Shown here: one piece after another, positions 34,233-43,862 of the stretch
Position numbering within the stretch: position 1 is the first letter of the stretch
Layout: every line of letters begins with the position of its first letter
DNA from: Candidatus Corynebacterium avicola
GTDB lineage: Bacteria; Actinomycetota; Actinomycetes; Mycobacteriales; Mycobacteriaceae
Length of the DNA: 48,814 nt
Direction: 5' to 3'
Assembly: GCA_019114135.1 (NCBI GenBank)
Contig: DXGC01000117.1
Span: forward strand, 1-48,814
The notes under the pieces: model-generated
What the model was told of the DNA's origin: nothing
Database searches by the model: none
The model's input: only the letters and a program-made list of their open reading frames with translations
Position numbers and translations under genes: made by a program

Positions 34233-35507
34233 ATGATTGATCTGAAGTTCCTCCGGGAGAACCCCGACGTCGTCCGTGATTCCCAACGTACCCGTGGTGA
34301 GGACCCCTCCCTGGTGGACCAGCTCCTGGAGGCGGATCAGCGCCGCCGTGAGGCCATCTCCGCCGCTGACGTGGCACGATCCGACGCCAAGGCGTACTCC
34401 AAGTCGATGGGCGCGAAGATGAAGGACGCCACCGACGAGGAGCGTACCGAGCTGCGCGCCGAGGGGCAGGCCCGCTCGGCGAAGGTCAAGGAACTCGAGG
34501 CCGTGCAGAACGAGGCCGAGGGCGCCGTCAACGACCTGCAGATGAAGATCTCCAACGTGGTCACCGGTGCACCGGCCGGCGGCGAGGACGACTTCGTCGT
34601 CCTGGAACACATCGGTGAGCCCACCGAGTTCGACTTCGAGCCGAAGGACCACCTCGAGCTCGGCGAGTCCCTCGGTCTGATCGACATGGAGCGCGGGGCG
34701 AAGGTCTCCGGCGCCCGCTTCTACTTCCTCACAGGCGACGGAGCCCTGCTCCAGCTCGGCCTGCTGCAGCTCGCCGCCCAGAAGGCCCGCGACCACGGCT
34801 TCCAGCTGATGATCCCGCCGGTGCTGGTGCGTCCGGAGATCATGGCCGGCACCGGCTTCCTCGGTGCCCACGCCGACGAGATCTACCGCCTCGAGGCCGA
34901 CGACATGTACCTGGTCGGCACCTCCGAGGTGGCCCTGGCCGGCTACCACAAGGACGAGATCATCGACCTGTCCGAGGGACCCGTCCGCTACGCCGGCTGG
35001 TCGTCCTGCTTCCGTCGCGAGGCCGGCTCCTACGGCAAGGACACCCGCGGCATCCTGCGCGTCCACCAGTTCGACAAGGTCGAGATGTTCGTCTACGCCA
35101 AGCCGGAGGAGTCCCAGCAGGTCCACCAGGAGCTGCTGGAGATGGAGAAGGACATGCTCTCGGCCGTCGAGGTGCCCTACCGGGTCATCGACGTCGCCGG
35201 TGGCGACCTCGGCTCCTCGGCCGCCCGCAAATTCGACACAGAGGCCTGGGTGCCCACCCAGGAGACCTACCGCGAGCTGACCTCCACCTCGGACTGCACC
35301 ACTTTCCAGGCCCGACGGCTCAAGACCCGCTACCGTGACAGTGACGGCAAGGCGCAGACCGCCGCCACTCTCAACGGCACCCTGGCGACCACCCGGTGGC
35401 TGGTGGCCATCCTGGAGAACAACCAGCAGGCCGATGGTTCGGTGGTGGTGCCCGAGGCACTGCGCCCGTTCGTCGGCAAGGACGTCCTGACGCCCAAGAC
35501 GAAGTAG
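34233..35507 (+). CDS. serS: Seryl-tRNA synthetase
   Basis: A 424-residue class II aminoacyl-tRNA synthetase. The N-terminal coiled-coil arm that binds the tRNA variable arm spans residues ~1-110 ([19 protein letters not shown] through [19 protein letters not shown]). The catalytic domain carries motif 2 ([24 protein letters not shown]) and motif 3 ([18 protein letters not shown]). [18 protein letters not shown] is typical of bacterial SerRS. The length is usual. An AAGGG ribosome-binding site precedes ATG 34233. It leads the serS-acyltransferase-HAD operon. Confidence 0.98.
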
Positions 35508-37338: not shown

Positions 37339-38688
37339 CTAGGTATTCCGTCGAACGTCCACTGCCTTGCCGGAGTTCGCTCTGGTGGACAATGCCACGA
37401 ACCCCAGGAAGATCATCGAGGACACCGCAAACGCCGCGAACACGCTGAACCCCCAGCTCTCCAGGCCTGCAGCAAAAAGCTGACCACCCAACCACGGGCC
37501 GAAGACGGCGCCAAACCTGCCCATCCCCGTCGTCCAGCCGATTGCTGTGGCCCTCATTGACGTCGGGAAGACGTGCGCGACTGCCGCGTACACCATCGTC
37601 TGCGAGCTGAACAGGAAGAACCCGGCGACGAAGATGATCGTGTAGGTCACGATGACCGGCGCCTTGACACTCAGCAGCAGGAGCATCAGCGCGGTAACAA
37701 AGAACCAGATCATCGCCACCCGTACCGGCCCCAGGGAATCCGAGAGTCGACCAGCGGTCAACATCCCGAACACACCGCCGAGATTCACCACCAGGAGGAA
37801 GGAGAGGGATGATCCGAGCGCGAAACCCTCCGACATCATCAATGACGGCAGCCAGTTGCTGAGTCCGTAGACCAGTAGGAGACCGCCGAAGGATGCGCAC
37901 CAGAAGAACAGCGTTGTTGCGATGTTCCGTCCGGTGAAGAGTTTGACGAGACTGGTGCCGACCGAACCGGTCGCCGAACTGGAGGATACTTCAGGCATAG
38001 CCACGCCTAGCTGCCGGCCAGTTTCCTCCGCCTCCCTGTGCCGTCCCTTAGCCTGGAGGAACGCCAGTGACTCTGGCATGTATTTTAGGATCAGGGGGAC
38101 GAGGACGATGAGCGGAAGCACTCCTACCCAGTACATCGAGCGCCATCCCAGTGCAGGAAGCAGCCAGATCCCGAGCAAGCTCGCGAGGATCCCACCTACC
38201 TGGTGTGCCGACATCAGCAGTCCGATCGAAAAGTTCCTGCTTCCGCCGGGGGAGTACTCCGAGACCATCGAAATAGCCGTAGGCAGCAGTCCGCCCAATC
38301 CGACGCCTGCCAGAGTCCGACCAATCCCGAAAATCATGGCGTTCGGAGCTATGGCGCACACTGCGGAAAACACGGAGAACACGACGGTGCAGCTGATGAT
38401 TCCCCAACGTCGGCCGATGACGTCCGTCAGCATGCCGACCGTCAAGGCGCCAATGAGCATTCCGAAGGTGGCGTAAGAACCGATGTCTCCGGCGAGCGAG
38501 GAACTCATGTCCAGATTCGTGTCTTCGGTCATCGGCGGAATCGTCGCACCGTACATGAATGTGTCGATGCCGTCGAAGCACACCGCCAACCAACACAGGA
38601 CCATGACGACGACCGGCCCCCTTCGCGAAGGTGGAGTCTCCGTGGCAGTGGACTTCCTCAACCGTTGTTCCGAAACTACTTGGCCCAT
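37339..38688 (-). CDS. MFS aromatic-acid:H+ symporter, AAHS family (GalT/PcaK-like)
   Basis: A 449-residue permease with 12 predicted membrane segments. Segment 1 has the AAHS hallmark Asp in LAVCFDGIDTFMYGATIPPM; the loop 2-3 motif is GMLTDVIGRRWGI; the family motif GVGLGGLLPTAISMVSEY lies in segment 4; the loop 8-9 repeat is AGRLSDSLGPV. These transporters import benzoate-type acids such as protocatechuate, vanillate, gentisate or gallate. It lies beside ring-cleavage genes and an operator-like copy sits ~150 bp upstream, so it is most likely the importer of the pathway substrate. It has a weak GAGGGA ribosome-binding site and somewhat lower GC than core genes. Confidence 0.88.
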   Translation of the reverse strand: MGQVVSEQRLRKSTATETPPSRRGPVVVMVLCWLAVCFDGIDTFMYGATIPPMTEDTNLDMSSSLAGDIGSYATFGMLIGALTVGMLTDVIGRRWGIISCTVVFSVFSAVCAIAPNAMIFGIGRTLAGVGLGGLLPTAISMVSEYSPGGSRNFSIGLLMSAHQVGGILASLLGIWLLPALGWRSMYWVGVLPLIVLVPLILKYMPESLAFLQAKGRHREAEETGRQLGVAMPEVSSSSATGSVGTSLVKLFTGRNIATTLFFWCASFGGLLLVYGLSNWLPSLMMSEGFALGSSLSFLLVVNLGGVFGMLTAGRLSDSLGPVRVAMIWFFVTALMLLLLSVKAPVIVTYTIIFVAGFFLFSSQTMVYAAVAHVFPTSMRATAIGWTTGMGRFGAVFGPWLGGQLFAAGLESWGFSVFAAFAVSSMIFLGFVALSTRANSGKAVDVRRNT

Positions 38689-39089
38689 GTCTGGTTCCCT
38701 CGATCCTGTCTCGATGCTGAGTGGACGATTCCGGGAGCGGGTCCCGTACGCCTAAACCTGCGGTCGCTGACCGACTGATTCCGCTAGTCGGTTGCAACAC
38801 GTTTGGTGTCCGCAAGTGAACCAGACCACATTCAGATCGTCAACAATCCTGTTATCAATATCGAGTAACCGAATTCTTCGTGCCATAGGACGGAAACCCC
38901 GAAGCGCCCCTCGGGCCATGACATATTGCCTGGTAAAAGCCACACATCTTGAGTGCTCGGCGCATTGGATAGGGGCTCGGTATGTCTCCCCCGAGATTCA
39001 CCCCACAATGTCGATTGCTGACATTCTTAACCTCTGTTGCCCTGACGGTCCCCCCGGTTTCCCCGGTGCCCATTCGTCCCTGGGTGGGC
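38689..39089. promoter_or_regulatory. 400-bp transporter leader and promoter region
   Basis: No gene is visible between the regulator gene and the transporter gene (both leftward). The region contains the operator-like site at 38839-38856, an inverted repeat ACCGACT-N9-AGTCGGT at 38770-38792 about 80 bases before the transporter start, and AT-rich sequence around the operator copy. It should hold the transporter promoter; the long distance suggests a sizeable leader. Confidence 0.55.
38839..38856. promoter_or_regulatory. Imperfect copy of the GntR operator upstream of the transporter
   Basis: GTCAACAATCCTGTTATC matches 14 of 18 positions of the perfect palindrome found in the operon promoter. 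Its left half (GTCAACAAT) is identical. It lies 151-168 bases upstream of the transporter ATG. Confidence 0.55.
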
Positions 39090-39761
39090 CTACAGGTTCT
39101 CCCCGATCTCCCTGATGGCCGTTCCGACGCTGGTCAGGTGTGCTTGCATTGCTGCGGCGGCCGAATCGGGATCATGGGCGCACACCGCCTCGATAATCGC
39201 CAGGTGCTGCGGCAGTGACACTTGTGGGCGGCCCTGCTGATTCGCGAGGCGGAACTGGTACCGGACCGCCTGCCCTCGGAGCCGCTGTACGGTGTCAGCG
39301 GCCGTCTTCTGGCCACTTACCTCGATGATTAGTGCATGGAGGCGCTTGTTCGCCGCAGCGTATGCTTCGCGGTCCCCGCCGTCGACGGCTCGCGCCATGT
39401 CGCGGCCGATCTCCCGGAGGTGGGAAATATCCTGTTCCTCGATGCGTTCCGCGGCCTTCCGGGCGCACAGTGCCTCCAGTGCGGCACGAACCTCTGTGAT
39501 CTCCACCGCCTCCTCCATGGTGACGGCACGGACCCGCGCGCCACGATTCTGTACGCGCTCGACCAGTCCCTCAACACTCAGTTCCGCGAGGGCGCCGCGC
39601 ACGCTTCCCCGTGATGCCCCGAATTCCTCGGCCAGATCCGCCTCCACCAGTCGTTGGCCAGGTACAAATCTCCCGGTTACGATCGAATTCCGCAGTTCGG
39701 TCACCAGATCATCCGTGCGGGGAGGGCTCTGTGGCGTGTTCTCCACACTCACGTTAACCAT
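39090..39761 (-). CDS. GntR-family transcriptional regulator with FCD ligand domain
   Basis: A ~223-residue repressor-type regulator. The winged helix is clear: TELRNSIVTGRFVPGQRLVE, ADLAEEFGASRGSVRGALAEL and VERVQNRGARVRAV. The all-helical FCD domain follows (EITEVRAALEALCARKAAERI, with metal/ligand residues such as the Asp/His of LHALIIEVS and LPQHLAIIEAV). ATG 39761 is chosen with AAAGG 8 bases upstream; a GTG at 39812 would add 17 residues. It is divergent from the catabolic operon across ~170 bp containing a perfect palindrome, so it probably represses the operon until the aromatic acid or a pathway intermediate binds. Confidence 0.9.
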   Translation of the reverse strand: MVNVSVENTPQSPPRTDDLVTELRNSIVTGRFVPGQRLVEADLAEEFGASRGSVRGALAELSVEGLVERVQNRGARVRAVTMEEAVEITEVRAALEALCARKAAERIEEQDISHLREIGRDMARAVDGGDREAYAAANKRLHALIIEVSGQKTAADTVQRLRGQAVRYQFRLANQQGRPQVSLPQHLAIIEAVCAHDPDSAAAAMQAHLTSVGTAIREIGENL

Positions 39762-39875
39762 GCCTCGACCTTTCGTACGGGGCCCTGTGACAGGCACCGG
39801 TTTCTCTGTCACGTCACTTTCTACCTGGCTAGCCTAGCAGTACCGCAAGGTCGCTCGACTGCGCGCCCGCTCGGA

Positions 39876-39904
39876 TTGTCAACAATTTTGTTGACGTATA
39901 TGAT
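39876..39904 (+). promoter_or_regulatory. Promoter with embedded palindromic operator of the catabolic operon
   Basis: TTGTCA (39876-39881) and TATGAT (39899-39904) are separated by exactly 17 bases, a near-consensus housekeeping promoter. The perfect 18-nt palindrome GTCAACAATTTTGTTGAC (39878-39895) fills the space between them, the classical position for repressor blocking. Transcription would start near 39911, ~23 bases before ATG 39934. The divergent GntR protein is the obvious ligand. Confidence 0.75.
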
Positions 39905-39933
39905 CGGGGTCACTGTCGAAGAAAGGACCGACA

Positions 39934-41094
39934 ATGACCCCTCCTCTACCGCAGACCGCGGTCCCGACGACCCTCATGCGTGGCGGCACCTCTCGGGGGC
40001 CGTTCTTCCTGGAGAGTGATCTCCCACCGGTCGGGGAACTCCGCGACCGCGTTCTCCTCGCTGTCATGGGAAGCCCTCACCCGCTGCAGGTCGACGGGGT
40101 GGGTGGGGGAAATCCTCTCACCAGTAAGGCCGGCGTTGTCGCACTGTCGCCGGAACCAGATATCGACCTGGACTTCACCTTTGGCCAGTTGCGTCCGGAA
40201 TCAGACACGGTGCAGTTCACCGCAAACTGCGGCAACTTGCTCGCTGCCGTACTTCCATTCGCCATCGAGCGCGGCCTGATCACTCCCGTGGGTGATCGGA
40301 CCACCGCCACCATCCGAACAACGAACACCGGACTCCTTGCCAGCGTCACCGTGGTGACCCCACTGGTGGAGGGTACAGACCGACGATTCGTCGCCTACGA
40401 CGGAGACACCCGGATCGCCGGGGTCGGCGCTACCTCAAGCCCGGTGGAGATCAGCTTTCTCGACACCGCCGGGTCCGTGGTCGGGCAGCTGCTACCCACT
40501 GGAAATCTGACCGACGATCTGGTCCTCCCCGACACTCGGACGGTGTCGGCCACTCTCATCGACAATGGTCAGCCGTTGGTTGTTCTGCGTGCCGATGAAC
40601 TTGGGATCGCTGGCGTGGAGCCCCCTCATGAGCTGGAGAACGAGCACGCACTGAAGCGCGGTCTGGAGGCTCTGCGATTACAGGCCGGAGAGCTGATGGG
40701 ACTCGGCGACGTCTCCTCGGTTTCCTATCCCAAGATGACTCTCGTCTCACCTCCCTCCGGTGACGGGGTCGGCGCGCTCTCGACCCGCAGTTTCATCCCG
40801 CACACAGTGCACCGGTCGATCGGAGTCCTCGCTGCAGTGACGGTGGCGACAGCCGCCTGCATGCCGGGAACCGTCGCGGCAACTGTGGCCGAAGCCGGTG
40901 AAGGCCGCGAGCGGACTCTCACCGTGGAGCATCCGAGCGGGGGTTTTCCTGTGCACCTCACCTTCGACGAACACGGCGATGTGGTCAGTTCAGGGATTAC
41001 TCGTACCGCCAGAAACATCATGGTCGGTGCAGTGAACGTGAGCCCGTCTGTCTGGTCACCCGGCCGGACCAACCAGAAAGGACCAGCCAAATGA
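39934..41094 (+). CDS. 4-oxalomesaconate tautomerase, PrpF family (LigU/GalD-like)
   Basis: A 386-residue isomerase. The PrpF-family opening VPTTLMRGGTSRGPFFLESDLP is unmistakable, followed by QVDGVGGGNPLTSKAGVVAL and the catalytic-Cys element FTANCGNLLAAVLPFAI (Cys99), then SYPKMTLVSPP. LigU and GalD isomerise 4-oxalomesaconate before its hydration. The family also contains methylaconitate isomerase (PrpF), but the LigJ- and LigK-type genes that follow make the 4-oxalomesaconate role far more likely. AAAGGA precedes ATG 39934. Its stop overlaps the next start (ATGA). Confidence 0.85.
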   Translation: MTPPLPQTAVPTTLMRGGTSRGPFFLESDLPPVGELRDRVLLAVMGSPHPLQVDGVGGGNPLTSKAGVVALSPEPDIDLDFTFGQLRPESDTVQFTANCGNLLAAVLPFAIERGLITPVGDRTTATIRTTNTGLLASVTVVTPLVEGTDRRFVAYDGDTRIAGVGATSSPVEISFLDTAGSVVGQLLPTGNLTDDLVLPDTRTVSATLIDNGQPLVVLRADELGIAGVEPPHELENEHALKRGLEALRLQAGELMGLGDVSSVSYPKMTLVSPPSGDGVGALSTRSFIPHTVHRSIGVLAAVTVATAACMPGTVAATVAEAGEGRERTLTVEHPSGGFPVHLTFDEHGDVVSSGITRTARNIMVGAVNVSPSVWSPGRTNQKGPAK

Positions 41095-42113
41095 TCATTG
41101 ACTGCCACGGTCACTTCACGACAGCCCCCGCCCCGTTGGGTGAATGGCGCGAGCAGCAGAACGCCGCACTTACCGGCGGTACGGAGCCCGATCCGGCAGG
41201 TCCCGTCATCCGCGACGATGAACTCCGCGAGGCTGTCGAGCCGCACCAGCTGAAGCTCATGGACGAACGCGGCATCGACCTCACGGTGTTTTCGCCCAGG
41301 GCCTCCTTCATGGCACACCACATAGGGGATTTTTCGACTTCCTCGACGTGGGCGCGCATCTGCAACGATCTCATTGCCCGGGTCGCCGAACTCTTCCCGA
41401 CGCGTTTCGCGCCGGCGGCGATGCTCCCGCAGTCCCCTGGAGTCGCTCCCGAGACCTGCATCCCGGAGTTGGAACGCTGCGTCGACGAGCACGACATCGT
41501 GGCGGTGAACATCAATCCGGATCCCTCAGGTGGGTACTGGACCTCACCCCCTCTCACCGATGAATCATGGTTTCCGCTGTACGAGAAGCTCGTGGAACAT
41601 GACCTTCCCGCCATGGTCCACGTATCGACCTCAGTCAATCCCGCGTTCCACACGACGGGTGCGCACTATCTCAACGCCGACACCACTGCGGTGATGCAGT
41701 TGATCCAGGGTGACCTGTTCGCGAAATTCCCCGACCTCCGCCTGGTCATCCCCCACGGTGGTGGTGCTTCCCCCTACCACTGGGGTCGCTTCCGGGGCTT
41801 GGCGATGGCGATGGGCAAGCCGCCGTTGGAGGAACACATTCTCGGCAATGTCTTCTTCGACACCTGCGTCTATCACCAGCCCGGGTTCGACACACTCATG
41901 GACGTCATCCCCCACGAGAACATTCTCTTCGCGTCCGAGATGATCGGTGCCGTCCGGAACATCGACCCCACGACCGGGAACTACTTCGACGACACCCTGC
42001 GGTACCTCGACAAAACAGGATTAAGCGCCACCGACCGCGAGGTGATCACCGAGGGAAACATCCGTCGGACCTACCCACGTCTCGACCGACGTCTCACCCG
42101 CCTCGGACTGTGA
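41091..42113 (+). CDS. ligJ: 4-oxalomesaconate hydratase, amidohydrolase family (LigJ-like)
   Basis: A 340-residue zinc enzyme of the amidohydrolase superfamily that adds water to 4-oxalomesaconate to give 4-carboxy-4-hydroxy-2-oxoadipate. The metal-binding HxH is DCHGHFTT (His6, His8). The stretches VFSPRASFMAHHIGDF, MLPQSPGVAPETCIPELERC, NPDPSGGYWTSPPLTDE, FHTTGAHYLNADTT, HGGGASPYHWGRFRG and FASEMIGAVR agree with the LigJ sequence as I remember it over most of the length, more closely than with decarboxylase relatives (LigW, ACMSD). The ATG overlaps the tautomerase stop. Confidence 0.88.
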   Translation: MIIDCHGHFTTAPAPLGEWREQQNAALTGGTEPDPAGPVIRDDELREAVEPHQLKLMDERGIDLTVFSPRASFMAHHIGDFSTSSTWARICNDLIARVAELFPTRFAPAAMLPQSPGVAPETCIPELERCVDEHDIVAVNINPDPSGGYWTSPPLTDESWFPLYEKLVEHDLPAMVHVSTSVNPAFHTTGAHYLNADTTAVMQLIQGDLFAKFPDLRLVIPHGGGASPYHWGRFRGLAMAMGKPPLEEHILGNVFFDTCVYHQPGFDTLMDVIPHENILFASEMIGAVRNIDPTTGNYFDDTLRYLDKTGLSATDREVITEGNIRRTYPRLDRRLTRLGL

Positions 42114-42147
42114 CACCACCACGGAAAACTACGGAAGGAAGAGCACC

Positions 42148-42831
42148 ATGTTTGATCTCGGCATCGTCCACACCGACGTTCGTCGTCCCGCCGCTGAACA
42201 CGTCGAGGCATTGGGGAGGTTCGGGGTTCCGACCATCCATGAAGCCATGGGACGCGTCGGACTCCTGCGCCCTTACATCCGGCCGATCTACCCCACCGCG
42301 AAGCTCTGCGGCCCAGCCGTCACAGTCCTGCTGCAACCCGGTGACAACTGGATGCTGCACGTAGCCGCGGAGCAGATCCGCCCTGGTGACGTCGTCGTCG
42401 CCGGGTGCACCACCGAGAGTGAGGACGGCTTCTTCGGCGAGCTGCTCGCCACGTCGATGCGTTCTCGTGGCTGCAGTGGGCTGGTGATTGACGGCGGCTG
42501 CCGGGACACCGAGGAACTGGAGGAGATGGATTTCCCGGTCTTCTCCCGTGCCATCAACTCCAAGGGCACCATCAAGGCCACCCTCGGCTCCGTCAATGTC
42601 CCGGTGGTGTGCGCCAACGCCCTTATCCATCCTGGGGACGTTGTCGTCGCTGACCACGACGGTGTCGTCGTCGTTCCCATCGACCGTGTTGCCGATGTCG
42701 CGGAGGCGGCGCAGAAGCGTGAGGACCTCGAAGCAAGCAAACGGACGAAGTTCCAGGACGGGACGCTCGGTCTGGACCTCTACAACATGCGTGGACCGTT
42801 GGCAGACGCCGGCCTGCGCTATGTCGACTGA
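42148..42831 (+). CDS. 4-carboxy-4-hydroxy-2-oxoadipate aldolase (LigK/GalC, RraA-like fold)
   Basis: A 227-residue metal-dependent class II aldolase that splits 4-carboxy-4-hydroxy-2-oxoadipate into pyruvate and oxaloacetate, and usually 4-hydroxy-4-methyl-2-oxoglutarate too. The active site is visible: GFFGELLATS (residues 95-103) binds pyruvate, and GLVIDGGCRDTEEL carries the Arg119-Asp120 pair for pyruvate and metal binding. GDVVVADHDGVVVVP is the conserved C-terminal strand. GGAAGGAAGAG precedes ATG 42148. It completes the lower pathway and follows ligJ by 34 bases. Confidence 0.9.
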   Translation: MFDLGIVHTDVRRPAAEHVEALGRFGVPTIHEAMGRVGLLRPYIRPIYPTAKLCGPAVTVLLQPGDNWMLHVAAEQIRPGDVVVAGCTTESEDGFFGELLATSMRSRGCSGLVIDGGCRDTEELEEMDFPVFSRAINSKGTIKATLGSVNVPVVCANALIHPGDVVVADHDGVVVVPIDRVADVAEAAQKREDLEASKRTKFQDGTLGLDLYNMRGPLADAGLRYVD

Positions 42832-42845
42832 AAGGGAGAAGGACC

Positions 42846-43862
42846 ATGGCTGAATACGAGAACTTCGACGTCTCCCACCTGGGCGCAGTGGAGCTGTTCA
42901 CCCCGGTGTTCGATGAAAGCCTGCAGTTTTTCACGGACCTGCTGTCCATGAAGGAGGTGGCGCGCATCGGCGACTCTGCTTACCTGCGGTGCTGGGACGA
43001 GTACGAGCTCTACACGATCAAACTCACCGCATCCGACACCAACGGTGTGGGACGCACCCTTTACCGGGCGTCCAGCCAGGAAGCCCTGGACCGTCGGGTC
43101 GCCGCCATCGAGTCGACCGGCCTCGGTCACGGCTGGCGGGAACCGGAGGTGGGCATCGGCGCGTCCTACGAATTCGAGGACCCGGACGGGCACCTCATGG
43201 CGCTCTACTACGAGACAGAATATTACGTCCCGGATGCAGACGACCGTCCTGCAATGAAGAACCAGGCATCGGCCTTCCCCGGTCACGGTGTCAACGCCCG
43301 GCGCCTGGATCACATCAACTACCTGTCCTCGGACGTCACTGCCTGCGGTGAGTTCTGGCGGGATGTCATGAAGGCACGGGAGTCAGAACGCGTCGCTCTA
43401 GACGACGGTGGATATGGCGCTTGGTGGTACCGATTCCAGCAGAAGTCCTACGATGTGGTCTACTCTGACGACTGGACCGGGGAGCGCGGGCGCTTCCACC
43501 ACCTCGCCTTCTCCCCAGACACCCGGGAGGACATCCTCAAGGCGGCGGACATCTTCGTGGAGAACGGGGTGTTCATCGAGTACGGCCCGTACAAGCACCT
43601 GATCAACCAGACGTTTTTCCTGTACGTGTGGGAACCAGGCGGCAACCGCATCGAGTTCGCCAATGCGGGAGCACGTTTGATACTCGACCCGGACTGGCCG
43701 GTAGTCGAATGGTCGGAGGCTGAGCGTGCCAAGGGGCAGGCGTGGGGGATGAAGACCGTACCCACCTTCCACACCCACGGTACCCCGTACGTGAAGGACC
43801 AGGATGAGATCGACCGGGCGGCGATGGAGGGGCGGAAATACGTGCCCTCGGAGGACCTCTAG
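42846..43862 (+). CDS. Type I (vicinal oxygen chelate) extradiol ring-cleavage dioxygenase
   Basis: A 338-residue two-domain Fe(II)/Mn(II) dioxygenase of the catechol 2,3-dioxygenase / homoprotocatechuate 2,3-dioxygenase group. The N-terminal domain (~10-125) has lost its metal site; the C-terminal domain (~150-275) is catalytic. Metal ligands are His156 (LDHINYL), His218 or His219 (RFHHLAF) and Glu270 (NRIEF). The acid-base residues His251 and Tyr260 fit the extradiol signature in YKHLINQTFFLYVWEPGG. The ~60-residue C-terminal extension with HGTPYV is homoprotocatechuate-enzyme-like. With the three genes before it, it should produce 4-oxalomesaconate, which implies gallate or a near relative as substrate. 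It lies 14 bases after the aldolase gene with GGGAGAAGGA upstream. Confidence 0.88.
   Translation: MAEYENFDVSHLGAVELFTPVFDESLQFFTDLLSMKEVARIGDSAYLRCWDEYELYTIKLTASDTNGVGRTLYRASSQEALDRRVAAIESTGLGHGWREPEVGIGASYEFEDPDGHLMALYYETEYYVPDADDRPAMKNQASAFPGHGVNARRLDHINYLSSDVTACGEFWRDVMKARESERVALDDGGYGAWWYRFQQKSYDVVYSDDWTGERGRFHHLAFSPDTREDILKAADIFVENGVFIEYGPYKHLINQTFFLYVWEPGGNRIEFANAGARLILDPDWPVVEWSEAERAKGQAWGMKTVPTFHTHGTPYVKDQDEIDRAAMEGRKYVPSEDL

What the first reader, a model, noticed from the sequence alone, without database searches (positions are those of the whole stretch)
37339..43862. Compact gallate-type catabolic island with a type I extradiol dioxygenase in place of a LigAB-type enzyme
Seen in sequence: an AAHS transporter, a GntR/FCD regulator, and an operon whose proteins carry the motifs of 4-oxalomesaconate tautomerase (PrpF type), 4-oxalomesaconate hydratase (LigJ type), 4-carboxy-4-hydroxy-2-oxoadipate aldolase (LigK/GalC type) and a vicinal oxygen chelate extradiol dioxygenase with all metal ligands. 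Established knowledge: gallate cleavage yields 4-oxalomesaconate in one step, whereas protocatechuate 4,5-cleavage also needs LigC (dehydrogenase) and LigI (lactonase), and neither is here. Known gallate dioxygenases (GalA, DesB) are LigAB-type, unrelated in fold. Inference: this type I enzyme cleaves gallate (or a close trihydroxybenzoate) directly to 4-oxalomesaconate, so the island would be a different evolutionary solution to gallate breakdown ending in pyruvate and oxaloacetate.
Basis: partly seen in the sequence, partly recalled or inferred. Interest (0 to 1): 0.88.

Follow-up and report, generated by a model that had tools for sequence, protein, structure and literature searches.

The report
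Gallate dioxygenase from another fold
A Corynebacterium carries a compact gene set predicted to break down gallic acid, the building block of many tannins, in which the ring-opening step is likely done by an enzyme from a different protein fold than the bacterial gallate dioxygenases known to us, and in which a tyrosine stands where related enzymes have their catalytic histidine.

Summary
An AAHS transporter and a GntR/FCD regulator lie beside a tight operon of PrpF-type oxalomesaconate tautomerase, LigJ hydratase, LigK aldolase and a vicinal oxygen chelate (type I) dioxygenase. In the host genome (Corynebacterium by serS; 94% complete) no LigB-fold protein and no LigI were found, and for LigC only a 24%-identical Gfo/Idh protein. 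Relatives of the enzyme occur in Actinomycetota, Bacillota and Pseudomonadota. In 80 named loci, 64 carry tautomerase, aldolase and hydratase around it; the hydratase is LigJ (17) or the unrelated PIG-L/GalB type (48), never both. LigM-like O-demethylase genes are near in 63. In 96 loci LigC has no hit over 48 bits. On an Agrobacterium walnut plasmid the operon adjoins a tannase. Of 15 loci without a hydratase, 8 genomes were searched and all 8 hold LigJ elsewhere. This points to gallate. New here: at the place of the acid-base His200 of type I enzymes the 92 rows of this clade have Tyr (Y202), the 27 other rows His (119 in all). Nothing was assayed, and one His-type member sits beside PIG-L and aldolase genes. 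Verdict: well-supported non-orthologous replacement of GalA/DesB, with an unexplained catalytic substitution.

The parts
37339..38688 (-). AAHS-family MFS transporter, likely gallate uptake
   Evidence: TIGR00895 295.7 bits, below cut-off 418.55; a homologous MFS follows the VOC gene in the g8 operons L134-L137
38839..38858 (-). imperfect copy (2 mismatches) of the palindrome upstream of the operon; lies between transporter and regulator
   Evidence: pattern taken from the site at 39876; mean 0.01 matches in shuffles
39090..39812 (-). GntR/FCD transcriptional regulator
   Evidence: PF07729 102.1, PF00392 62.1 bits; homologous GntR near the VOC gene in 29 of 80 loci
39876..39895 (+). palindrome TTGTCAACAATTTTGTTGAC, possible GntR operator upstream of the operon
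   Evidence: read: similar palindromes upstream of the operon in L009 (1 mismatch of 14), L006 and L033-L039 (3 mismatches), none better than 4 in L007, L010, L085; no shuffle control
39934..41094 (+). PrpF-type 4-oxalomesaconate tautomerase/isomerase (GalD/LigU)
   Evidence: NF033377 427.1 bits (cut-off 440); 6p3j 315.5 bits
41091..42113 (+). LigJ-type 4-oxalomesaconate hydratase
   Evidence: 2gwg 518.4 bits, 6dxq 474.6 bits
42148..42831 (+). LigK/GalC 4-carboxy-4-hydroxy-2-oxoadipate aldolase
   Evidence: TIGR02798 378.8 bits, above cut-off 304.5; 3noj 250.3 bits
42846..43862 (+). type I (VOC) ring-cleaving dioxygenase, predicted gallate dioxygenase
   Evidence: neighbourhoods
43311..43313 (+). 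codon of metal ligand H156 (H155 of 1f1r)
43449..43451 (+). codon of Y202, at the place of catalytic His200
43500..43502 (+). codon of metal ligand H219 (H214 of 1f1r)
43653..43655 (+). codon of metal ligand E270 (E267 of 1f1r)

Best explanation
The island is likely a complete gallate catabolic unit in which a type I (VOC-fold) dioxygenase, predicted to be iron-dependent, would open gallate directly to 4-oxalomesaconate in place of the LigAB-type GalA/DesB. The predicted order is: gallate enters through the AAHS transporter; the VOC enzyme cleaves the bond between two hydroxyl-bearing carbons; PrpF isomerises 4-oxalomesaconate; LigJ hydrates it; LigK splits the product to pyruvate and oxaloacetate; the GntR/FCD protein controls both divergent units. 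Shown by calls: gene content, the metal-ligand triad, the absence of LigB and LigI matches in the host genome, conserved co-location in two phyla, and Tyr in place of His200. Inferred: substrate, product, metal, the role of Tyr202, and regulation. Cleavage of gallate between C3 and C4 (= C4 and C5 by symmetry) gives the same product whether counted as intradiol or extradiol; I suggest that this is why the clade could lose the acid-base histidine.
For: Lower pathway beside the enzyme. Host genome: 0 LigB matches, 0 LigI matches, one Gfo/Idh at 24% to a LigC, no LigM over cut-off. 80 named loci: tautomerase 70, aldolase 65, hydratase 65 (PIG-L 48 or LigJ 17, never both), all three 64, LigM-like 63; two LigM-like proteins checked, 914 and 917 bits, cut-off 580. 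33 of 47 genomes searched have no LigB match. In 96 loci LigC has no hit over 48 bits and LigAB occurs once. Agrobacterium pAt: PIG-L, VOC, aldolase, tautomerase, tannase in a row (PF07519 437.9 bits). Four large-genome actinomycetes (genus g8): GntR, PIG-L, aldolase, tautomerase, VOC, MFS. 396-genome sample: 8 of 9 genomes with a tautomerase over 420 bits have the Tyr-type enzyme; the ninth has LigC, LigB, LigA, LigI and LigJ in one cluster. Positions of homoprotocatechuate dioxygenase Arg243 and Arg293 read Tyr246 and Gly297.
Against: No activity was measured. One His202 member (L114/L142) also sits beside PIG-L and aldolase genes, so Tyr does not map one-to-one onto the pathway. 10 of 80 loci lack every lower gene; six of these were among the 8 genomes searched for LigJ, all positive, four could not be or were not checked. 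LigI, which acts on 2-pyrone-4,6-dicarboxylate, is near the enzyme in 4 of 96 loci, and LigAB with it in one. The host genome is 94% complete in 128 contigs. The one solved structure with the Tyr among the sequences aligned, 9wgj, is named catechol 1,2-dioxygenase by its depositors. The 396-genome overlap is not corrected for kinship: six of the eight genomes are from one genus, and the 420-bit line was set after seeing the scores (next lower 327).
Confidence: 0.84

Rival explanations
1. The enzyme's true substrate is 3-O-methylgallate; it opens the ring before the methyl group is lost, giving the methyl ester or 2-pyrone-4,6-dicarboxylate, which then joins the same lower pathway.
For: LigM-like genes near the enzyme in 63 of 80 loci and DesA-like genes in 37; LigI near it in 4 of 96. 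P. putida GalA also takes 3-O-methylgallate (PMC12481942, passages).
Against: LigM removes the methyl group of 3-O-methylgallate, so its presence argues that gallate is the ring-cleavage substrate. The window genome has no LigM over cut-off, and the g8 operons L134-L137 and the Agrobacterium operon L172 show no O-demethylase hit in 19-20 kb, the latter a tannase instead. LigI gave no hit in 92 of 96 loci.
Confidence: 0.1
2. A protocatechuate 4,5-dioxygenase of type I that feeds the classic LigC/LigI route, with those genes elsewhere in the genome.
For: LigJ and LigK serve both routes; five genomes hold a LigJ-LigK-LigI-LigAB-LigC cluster besides the VOC gene.
Against: LigC has no hit over 48 bits in 96 VOC loci; window genome without LigI match and with only a 24% Gfo/Idh. 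Those five genomes already have a LigAB.
Confidence: 0.04
3. An ordinary catechol 2,3-dioxygenase or homoprotocatechuate 2,3-dioxygenase that happens to sit next to lig genes.
For: Best NCBIfam hit is TIGR03211 (284.5 bits), and a Tyr-type relative, L138, passes that model's cut-off at 325.2; most names shown are catechol 2,3-dioxygenase or VOC family protein.
Against: The window protein is below the cut-off of 320.2; Tyr at the His200 place and the Arg243/Arg293 positions changed; the operon holds none of the usual semialdehyde-processing genes; co-location with oxalomesaconate genes in two phyla.
Confidence: 0.02

Closest known systems
Gallate dioxygenase GalA (P. putida KT2440) and DesB (Sphingobium SYK-6), LigAB-type (type II)
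   Same: Predicted reaction (gallate to 4-oxalomesaconate) and neighbours: transporter, regulator, hydratase, aldolase and tautomerase, as in the gallate pathway of P. putida (PMC9942251, passages)
   Different: Unrelated fold (PF02900 versus PF00903); no LigB-fold match in the window genome. In DesB His192 is the likely catalytic base (PMC3962378, abstract and passages)
AphC of Rhodococcus RHA1 (7q2a, 3lm4), type I extradiol dioxygenase solved with 4-ethylcatechol
   Different: 3lm4 has His at the place of Tyr202. The link of 3lm4 to AphC is by the near-identical alignments
9wgj, deposited as catechol 1,2-dioxygenase
   Same: Closest solved sequence (371 bits), 52% identity, same Tyr, within the Tyr clade of the tree; its searched stretch is identical to P0121, Geobacillus zalihae
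   Different: Other phylum; its neighbourhood was not seen and the library search for its code found no paper
Homoprotocatechuate 2,3-dioxygenase (1f1r, 1q0c)
   Same: Fold, metal triad, His248 and Tyr257 equivalents H251 and Y260
   Different: His200 is Tyr202, Arg243 is Tyr246, Arg293 is Gly297
Gal/lig lower pathway: LigU/GalD, LigJ or GalB, LigK/GalC
   Same: All three enzymes by sequence
   Different: Nothing unusual in the lower pathway itself

Membership tests
Type I (VOC) extradiol dioxygenase | His-His-Glu metal ligands | tested here: met
   H156, H219, E270 match H155, H214, E267 of 1f1r; HHE in all 119 rows
Type I (VOC) extradiol dioxygenase | paired-module VOC fold | tested here: met
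Type I (VOC) extradiol dioxygenase | conserved acid-base histidine (His200 of homoprotocatechuate dioxygenase) | tested here: not met
   Tyr202 in window and 91 other rows; His in the 27 remaining rows
Catechol 2,3-dioxygenase TIGR03211 | curated score 320.2 | tested here: not met
   284.5 bits; a Tyr-type relative, L138, does pass with 325.2
LigAB-type gallate dioxygenase (GalA, DesB) | LigB fold, PF02900 | tested here: not met
   only PF00903 matched; no PF02900 match in the genome
LigAB-type gallate dioxygenase (GalA, DesB) | turnover of gallate to 4-oxalomesaconate | not testable with these tools
   needs an assay; implied by neighbours only
Homoprotocatechuate 2,3-dioxygenase | arginines at 243 and 293 (their role in carboxylate binding is recalled) | tested here: not met
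   Tyr246 and Gly297 in the alignment
LigK/PcmE aldolase TIGR02798 | curated score 304.5 | tested here: met
   378.8 bits
4-oxalomesaconate tautomerase NF033377 | curated score 440 | tested here: not met
   427.1 bits, far over PrpF TIGR02334 at 199.2; assigned by best model and neighbours, not by the cut-off
LigJ 4-oxalomesaconate hydratase | closest relatives are the solved hydratases | tested here: met
   2gwg 518 and 6dxq 475 bits, next family 167 bits

The most novel reading that the evidence does not exclude
A clade of VOC-fold gallate dioxygenases, spread over Actinomycetota, Bacillota and Pseudomonadota, arose independently of GalA/DesB and works without the acid-base histidine held to be general in extradiol enzymes: a tyrosine takes its place, because gallate's symmetric triol gives one and the same product by intradiol or extradiol cleavage, so the enzyme need not control regiochemistry and may run an intradiol-like course on an extradiol scaffold.
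Probability: 0.4. Interest if true: 0.88.

Novelty: new variant of a known kind. Interest (0 to 1): 0.76.

Why it matters
Gallate is a product of tannin and syringyl-lignin breakdown, and the bacterial gallate dioxygenases known to us (GalA, DesB) are LigAB-type; AromaDeg likewise files gallate dioxygenases in the LigB superfamily (PMC4250580, passages). A second, unrelated ring-opener would explain how bacteria without LigB genes could use gallate and syringate, and would give a function to many proteins now called catechol 2,3-dioxygenase or VOC family protein (239 of the 240 best relatives listed have the Tyr). The natural His-to-Tyr exchange offers a ready test of what the acid-base histidine does in ring cleavage, which PDB entries show has been studied through variants made at that place (H200Q, N, E, C).

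Tried and rejected
Homoprotocatechuate, catechol and protocatechuate as substrates: set low for the reasons under rivals. LigC elsewhere in the host: the only Gfo/Idh match (C1, 24% to a LigC, 50.7 bits; 27%, 54.3 bits by BLASTP) sits beside what looks to me like a nucleoside hydrolase (my reading of the translation, not searched) and is not convincing. LigI elsewhere: the second amidohydrolase over cut-off (C104) showed no BLASTP similarity to a LigI (18.5 bits), and that LigI gave no match in the genome (the tool warns that an empty answer alone shows little). The own genome's second VOC enzyme (C31, 34%) has His at this place and lies in another cluster that looks like a catechol meta-cleavage cluster. 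A palindrome pattern with a wrong spacer found only one chance-level hit.

Papers: 10 searches of a library that holds only CC-licensed PubMed Central papers listed no paper whose title or shown abstract describes a VOC-fold or type I gallate dioxygenase; I opened nine. Subscription papers are not covered, so this is weak evidence of absence. Seen as passages (some with the abstract among them): PMC9867520, PMC12311729, PMC4250580, PMC12481942, PMC8431788, PMC9942251, PMC3962378, PMC11264262, PMC10512348. PMC6888825 was seen only in the listing. PMC4558303 is not held. In the fungus Aspergillus niger gallate use does not need the 17 predicted ring-cleavage enzymes and may start with an FAD monooxygenase (PMC10512348, abstract and passages), so my statement on known folds is about bacteria. 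The roles of HPCD Arg243/Arg293 are recalled, not read.
Full report
What is there. The operon PrpF, LigJ, LigK, VOC dioxygenase (39934-43862, plus strand) is tightly packed, with gaps of -4, 34 and 14 bases. Divergent from it lie the GntR/FCD regulator (39090-39812) and the AAHS-type transporter (37339-38688). LigK is over its curated cut-off (378.8 vs 304.5); the tautomerase is just under (427.1 vs 440); the VOC protein is under the cut-off for catechol 2,3-dioxygenase (284.5 vs 320.2). LigJ matches the solved oxalomesaconate hydratases at 473-518 bits, the next family at 167. A palindrome, TTGTCAACAATTTTGTTGAC, lies upstream of the operon (39876-39895). A pattern made from it finds, besides itself, a two-mismatch copy between transporter and regulator (38839-38858), against a mean of 0.01 in shuffles. 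Upstream of the operon in relatives, similar palindromes were seen in L009 (1 mismatch of 14 positions) and in L006 and L033-L039 (3 mismatches), none better than 4 in L007, L010 or L085; no shuffle control was run there. The island's G+C is 59-63.5% against 66-72% in the flanks, which fits acquisition from elsewhere. The seryl-tRNA synthetase (34233-35507) places the host in Corynebacterium: the best hit (96%) has no name, the best named ones (88-89%) are Corynebacterium. The nearest named relatives of the VOC protein are Brevibacterium (90%).

The host genome. It is 94.1% complete in 128 contigs. It has no LigB-fold match (4 of 14 control genomes rang). Two amidohydrolases are over the family cut-off, this LigJ and one with no similarity to LigI. 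LigI gave no match, LigC one Gfo/Idh protein at 24%, and LigM only a match far below cut-off (40.9 bits vs 580). So neither the protocatechuate 4,5 route nor a LigM route from syringate is visible.

Neighbourhoods in named genomes. One scan of genome contigs returned the best 80 of 166 relatives. By tblastn with window and locus proteins, 75 bits or more, 70 of 80 loci have a tautomerase, 65 an aldolase, 65 a hydratase and 64 all three. The hydratase is LigJ in 17 and a PIG-L protein of GalB type in 48, never both: two unrelated hydratases around the same dioxygenase. 63 of 80 have a LigM-like gene and 37 a DesA-like one. Two LigM-like proteins were checked and score 914 and 917 bits on the LigM model (cut-off 580); the one DesA-like protein checked scores 482 on the DesA model, under its cut-off of 800. 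In Sphingobium SYK-6, DesA and LigM turn syringate into gallate (PMC6888825, abstract start in the listing). 28 of 80 have a methionine-synthase-like gene, fitting methyl recycling. Twelve loci share the window's PrpF, LigJ, LigK set.

The exceptions. Fifteen of 80 loci have no hydratase and ten have none of the lower genes: L015, L016, L017, L020, L021, L024, L044, L055, L057, L078. L015 and L017 lie on contigs of 5.6 and 12.5 kb; the genomes of L021 and L057 are not held; these four were not resolved. For the other six, and for L049 and L064, LigJ was found elsewhere in the genome in 8 of 8. Five (G008, G011, G014, G037, G046) carry it in a cluster of LigJ, LigK, LigI, LigAB and LigC, and these are the five genomes with the strongest LigB scores (294-306 bits). 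There the VOC gene would feed a shared lower pathway. Of 47 genomes searched (50 of 80 loci given, 3 not held), 33 have no LigB match and 14 have one or more; the weaker ones were not identified.

LigC, LigI, LigAB and tannase. LigC has one hit of 47.8 bits, LigAB occurs once (Roseomonas, L173), LigI four times (L007, L010, L085, L173); six of six control loci ring for LigC, LigI and LigAB, two of them being the source of the queries. LigI without LigC may salvage 2-pyrone-4,6-dicarboxylate, formed from 3-O-methylgallate by GalA and from gallate by PcaHG (PMC12481942, passages). On plasmid pAt of Agrobacterium tumefaciens 186 from walnut the order is PIG-L, VOC, aldolase, oxalomesaconate tautomerase, tannase (PF07519 437.9 bits). 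Arthrobacter L085 has a strong tannase hit (419 bits); six further loci have weak ones (142-170 bits). Tannase releases gallate. Of 87 plasmid records with a match I opened 8: besides Agrobacterium, Roseibium, Rhizobium and Thioclava show PIG-L, VOC, aldolase and tautomerase together, Nonomuraea the same with GntR by tblastn, Methylobacterium LigJ- and LigK-like genes, Roseomonas an aldolase, LigI and a class III dioxygenase, Chimaeribacter the VOC gene without them.

Sample of the phylum. In 396 genomes, 44 have a VOC match at 1e-20 or better. Fourteen have one better than 1e-100, and position 202 is Tyr in these (G363's contig is that of L041). Seventeen genomes have a tautomerase match at 1e-60; nine score 427-518 bits, the other eight 327 or less. 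Of the nine, eight are among the fourteen (hypergeometric 1.9e-12). The line between nine and eight was drawn after seeing the scores, and kinship is ignored: six of the eight belong to one genus, g8. The ninth, G396, has LigB, LigA, LigI, LigC, LigJ, aldolase and tautomerase in one cluster (LigA and the order from my reading of the translations). In this sample the LigC/LigI pair goes with LigAB, and the VOC enzyme goes without it. In the g8 operons opened (L134-L137) the order is GntR, PIG-L, aldolase, tautomerase, VOC, MFS. Six of the fourteen (family f18) have PIG-L and aldolase-like genes beside the VOC gene but no tautomerase match at 1e-60.

Mechanism, as inferred. Gallate has hydroxyls at C3, C4 and C5. 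Breaking C3-C4 (or C4-C5) gives 4-oxalomesaconate whether the bond is counted as lying inside or beside the chelated diol. An enzyme dedicated to gallate thus does not need to steer between intradiol and extradiol cleavage, and the acid-base histidine could be replaced. Whether Tyr202 donates a proton, binds a hydroxyl, or merely fills space cannot be told from sequence.

Limits. No assay; unnamed and partly incomplete genomes; the Bacillota branch was seen without its neighbourhoods. An actinobacterial LigAB-type enzyme also takes gallate (44% of its activity, Pseudarthrobacter, PMC8431788, passages), so genomes with both could have two ways.

Noticed in passing
L142 (G385:C395) and P0210: A VOC dioxygenase with His at position 202 next to PIG-L and RraA-type aldolase genes (L142; P0210 is a protein with a similar motif, context unseen): a possible intermediate between the His and Tyr groups.
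   Followed up: partly
L172, plasmid pAt of Agrobacterium tumefaciens 186 (walnut): PIG-L, VOC, aldolase, oxalomesaconate tautomerase and tannase in a row; 19 of the 40 plasmid rows listed are Agrobacterium records from walnut with the same match.
   Followed up: partly
L144 (G000:C31): The host genome has a second, His-type VOC dioxygenase (34% identity) in what looks like a catechol meta-cleavage cluster.
   Followed up: partly
L129-L133: Five genomes that hold the VOC gene also carry LigJ, LigK, LigI, LigAB and LigC clusters (fused LigA-LigB over the NF009912 cut-off in L129).
   Followed up: partly
L052:11064-12173 and 27 other loci: A methionine-synthase-like protein (PRK06520 family in L052) lies near the VOC gene in 28 of 80 loci, perhaps to recycle methyl-tetrahydrofolate from O-demethylation.
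   Followed up: no
L007, L010, L085, L173: LigI-type lactonase without LigC near the VOC enzyme; may salvage 2-pyrone-4,6-dicarboxylate.
   Followed up: no
L172, L173, L177, L179: A DUF1932/NAD-binding protein of unknown role recurs beside the alphaproteobacterial VOC genes.
   Followed up: no
PDB 9wgj (P0121, Geobacillus): A solved structure named catechol 1,2-dioxygenase belongs to the Tyr clade; if intradiol activity was measured it would bear directly on the mechanism.
   Followed up: partly
window 37500-43500: G+C of the island is 59-63.5% against 66-72% around it, and the VOC protein is 90% identical to Brevibacterium iodinum (L006) while its operon partners are 63-81%: the parts may have different histories.
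   Followed up: no
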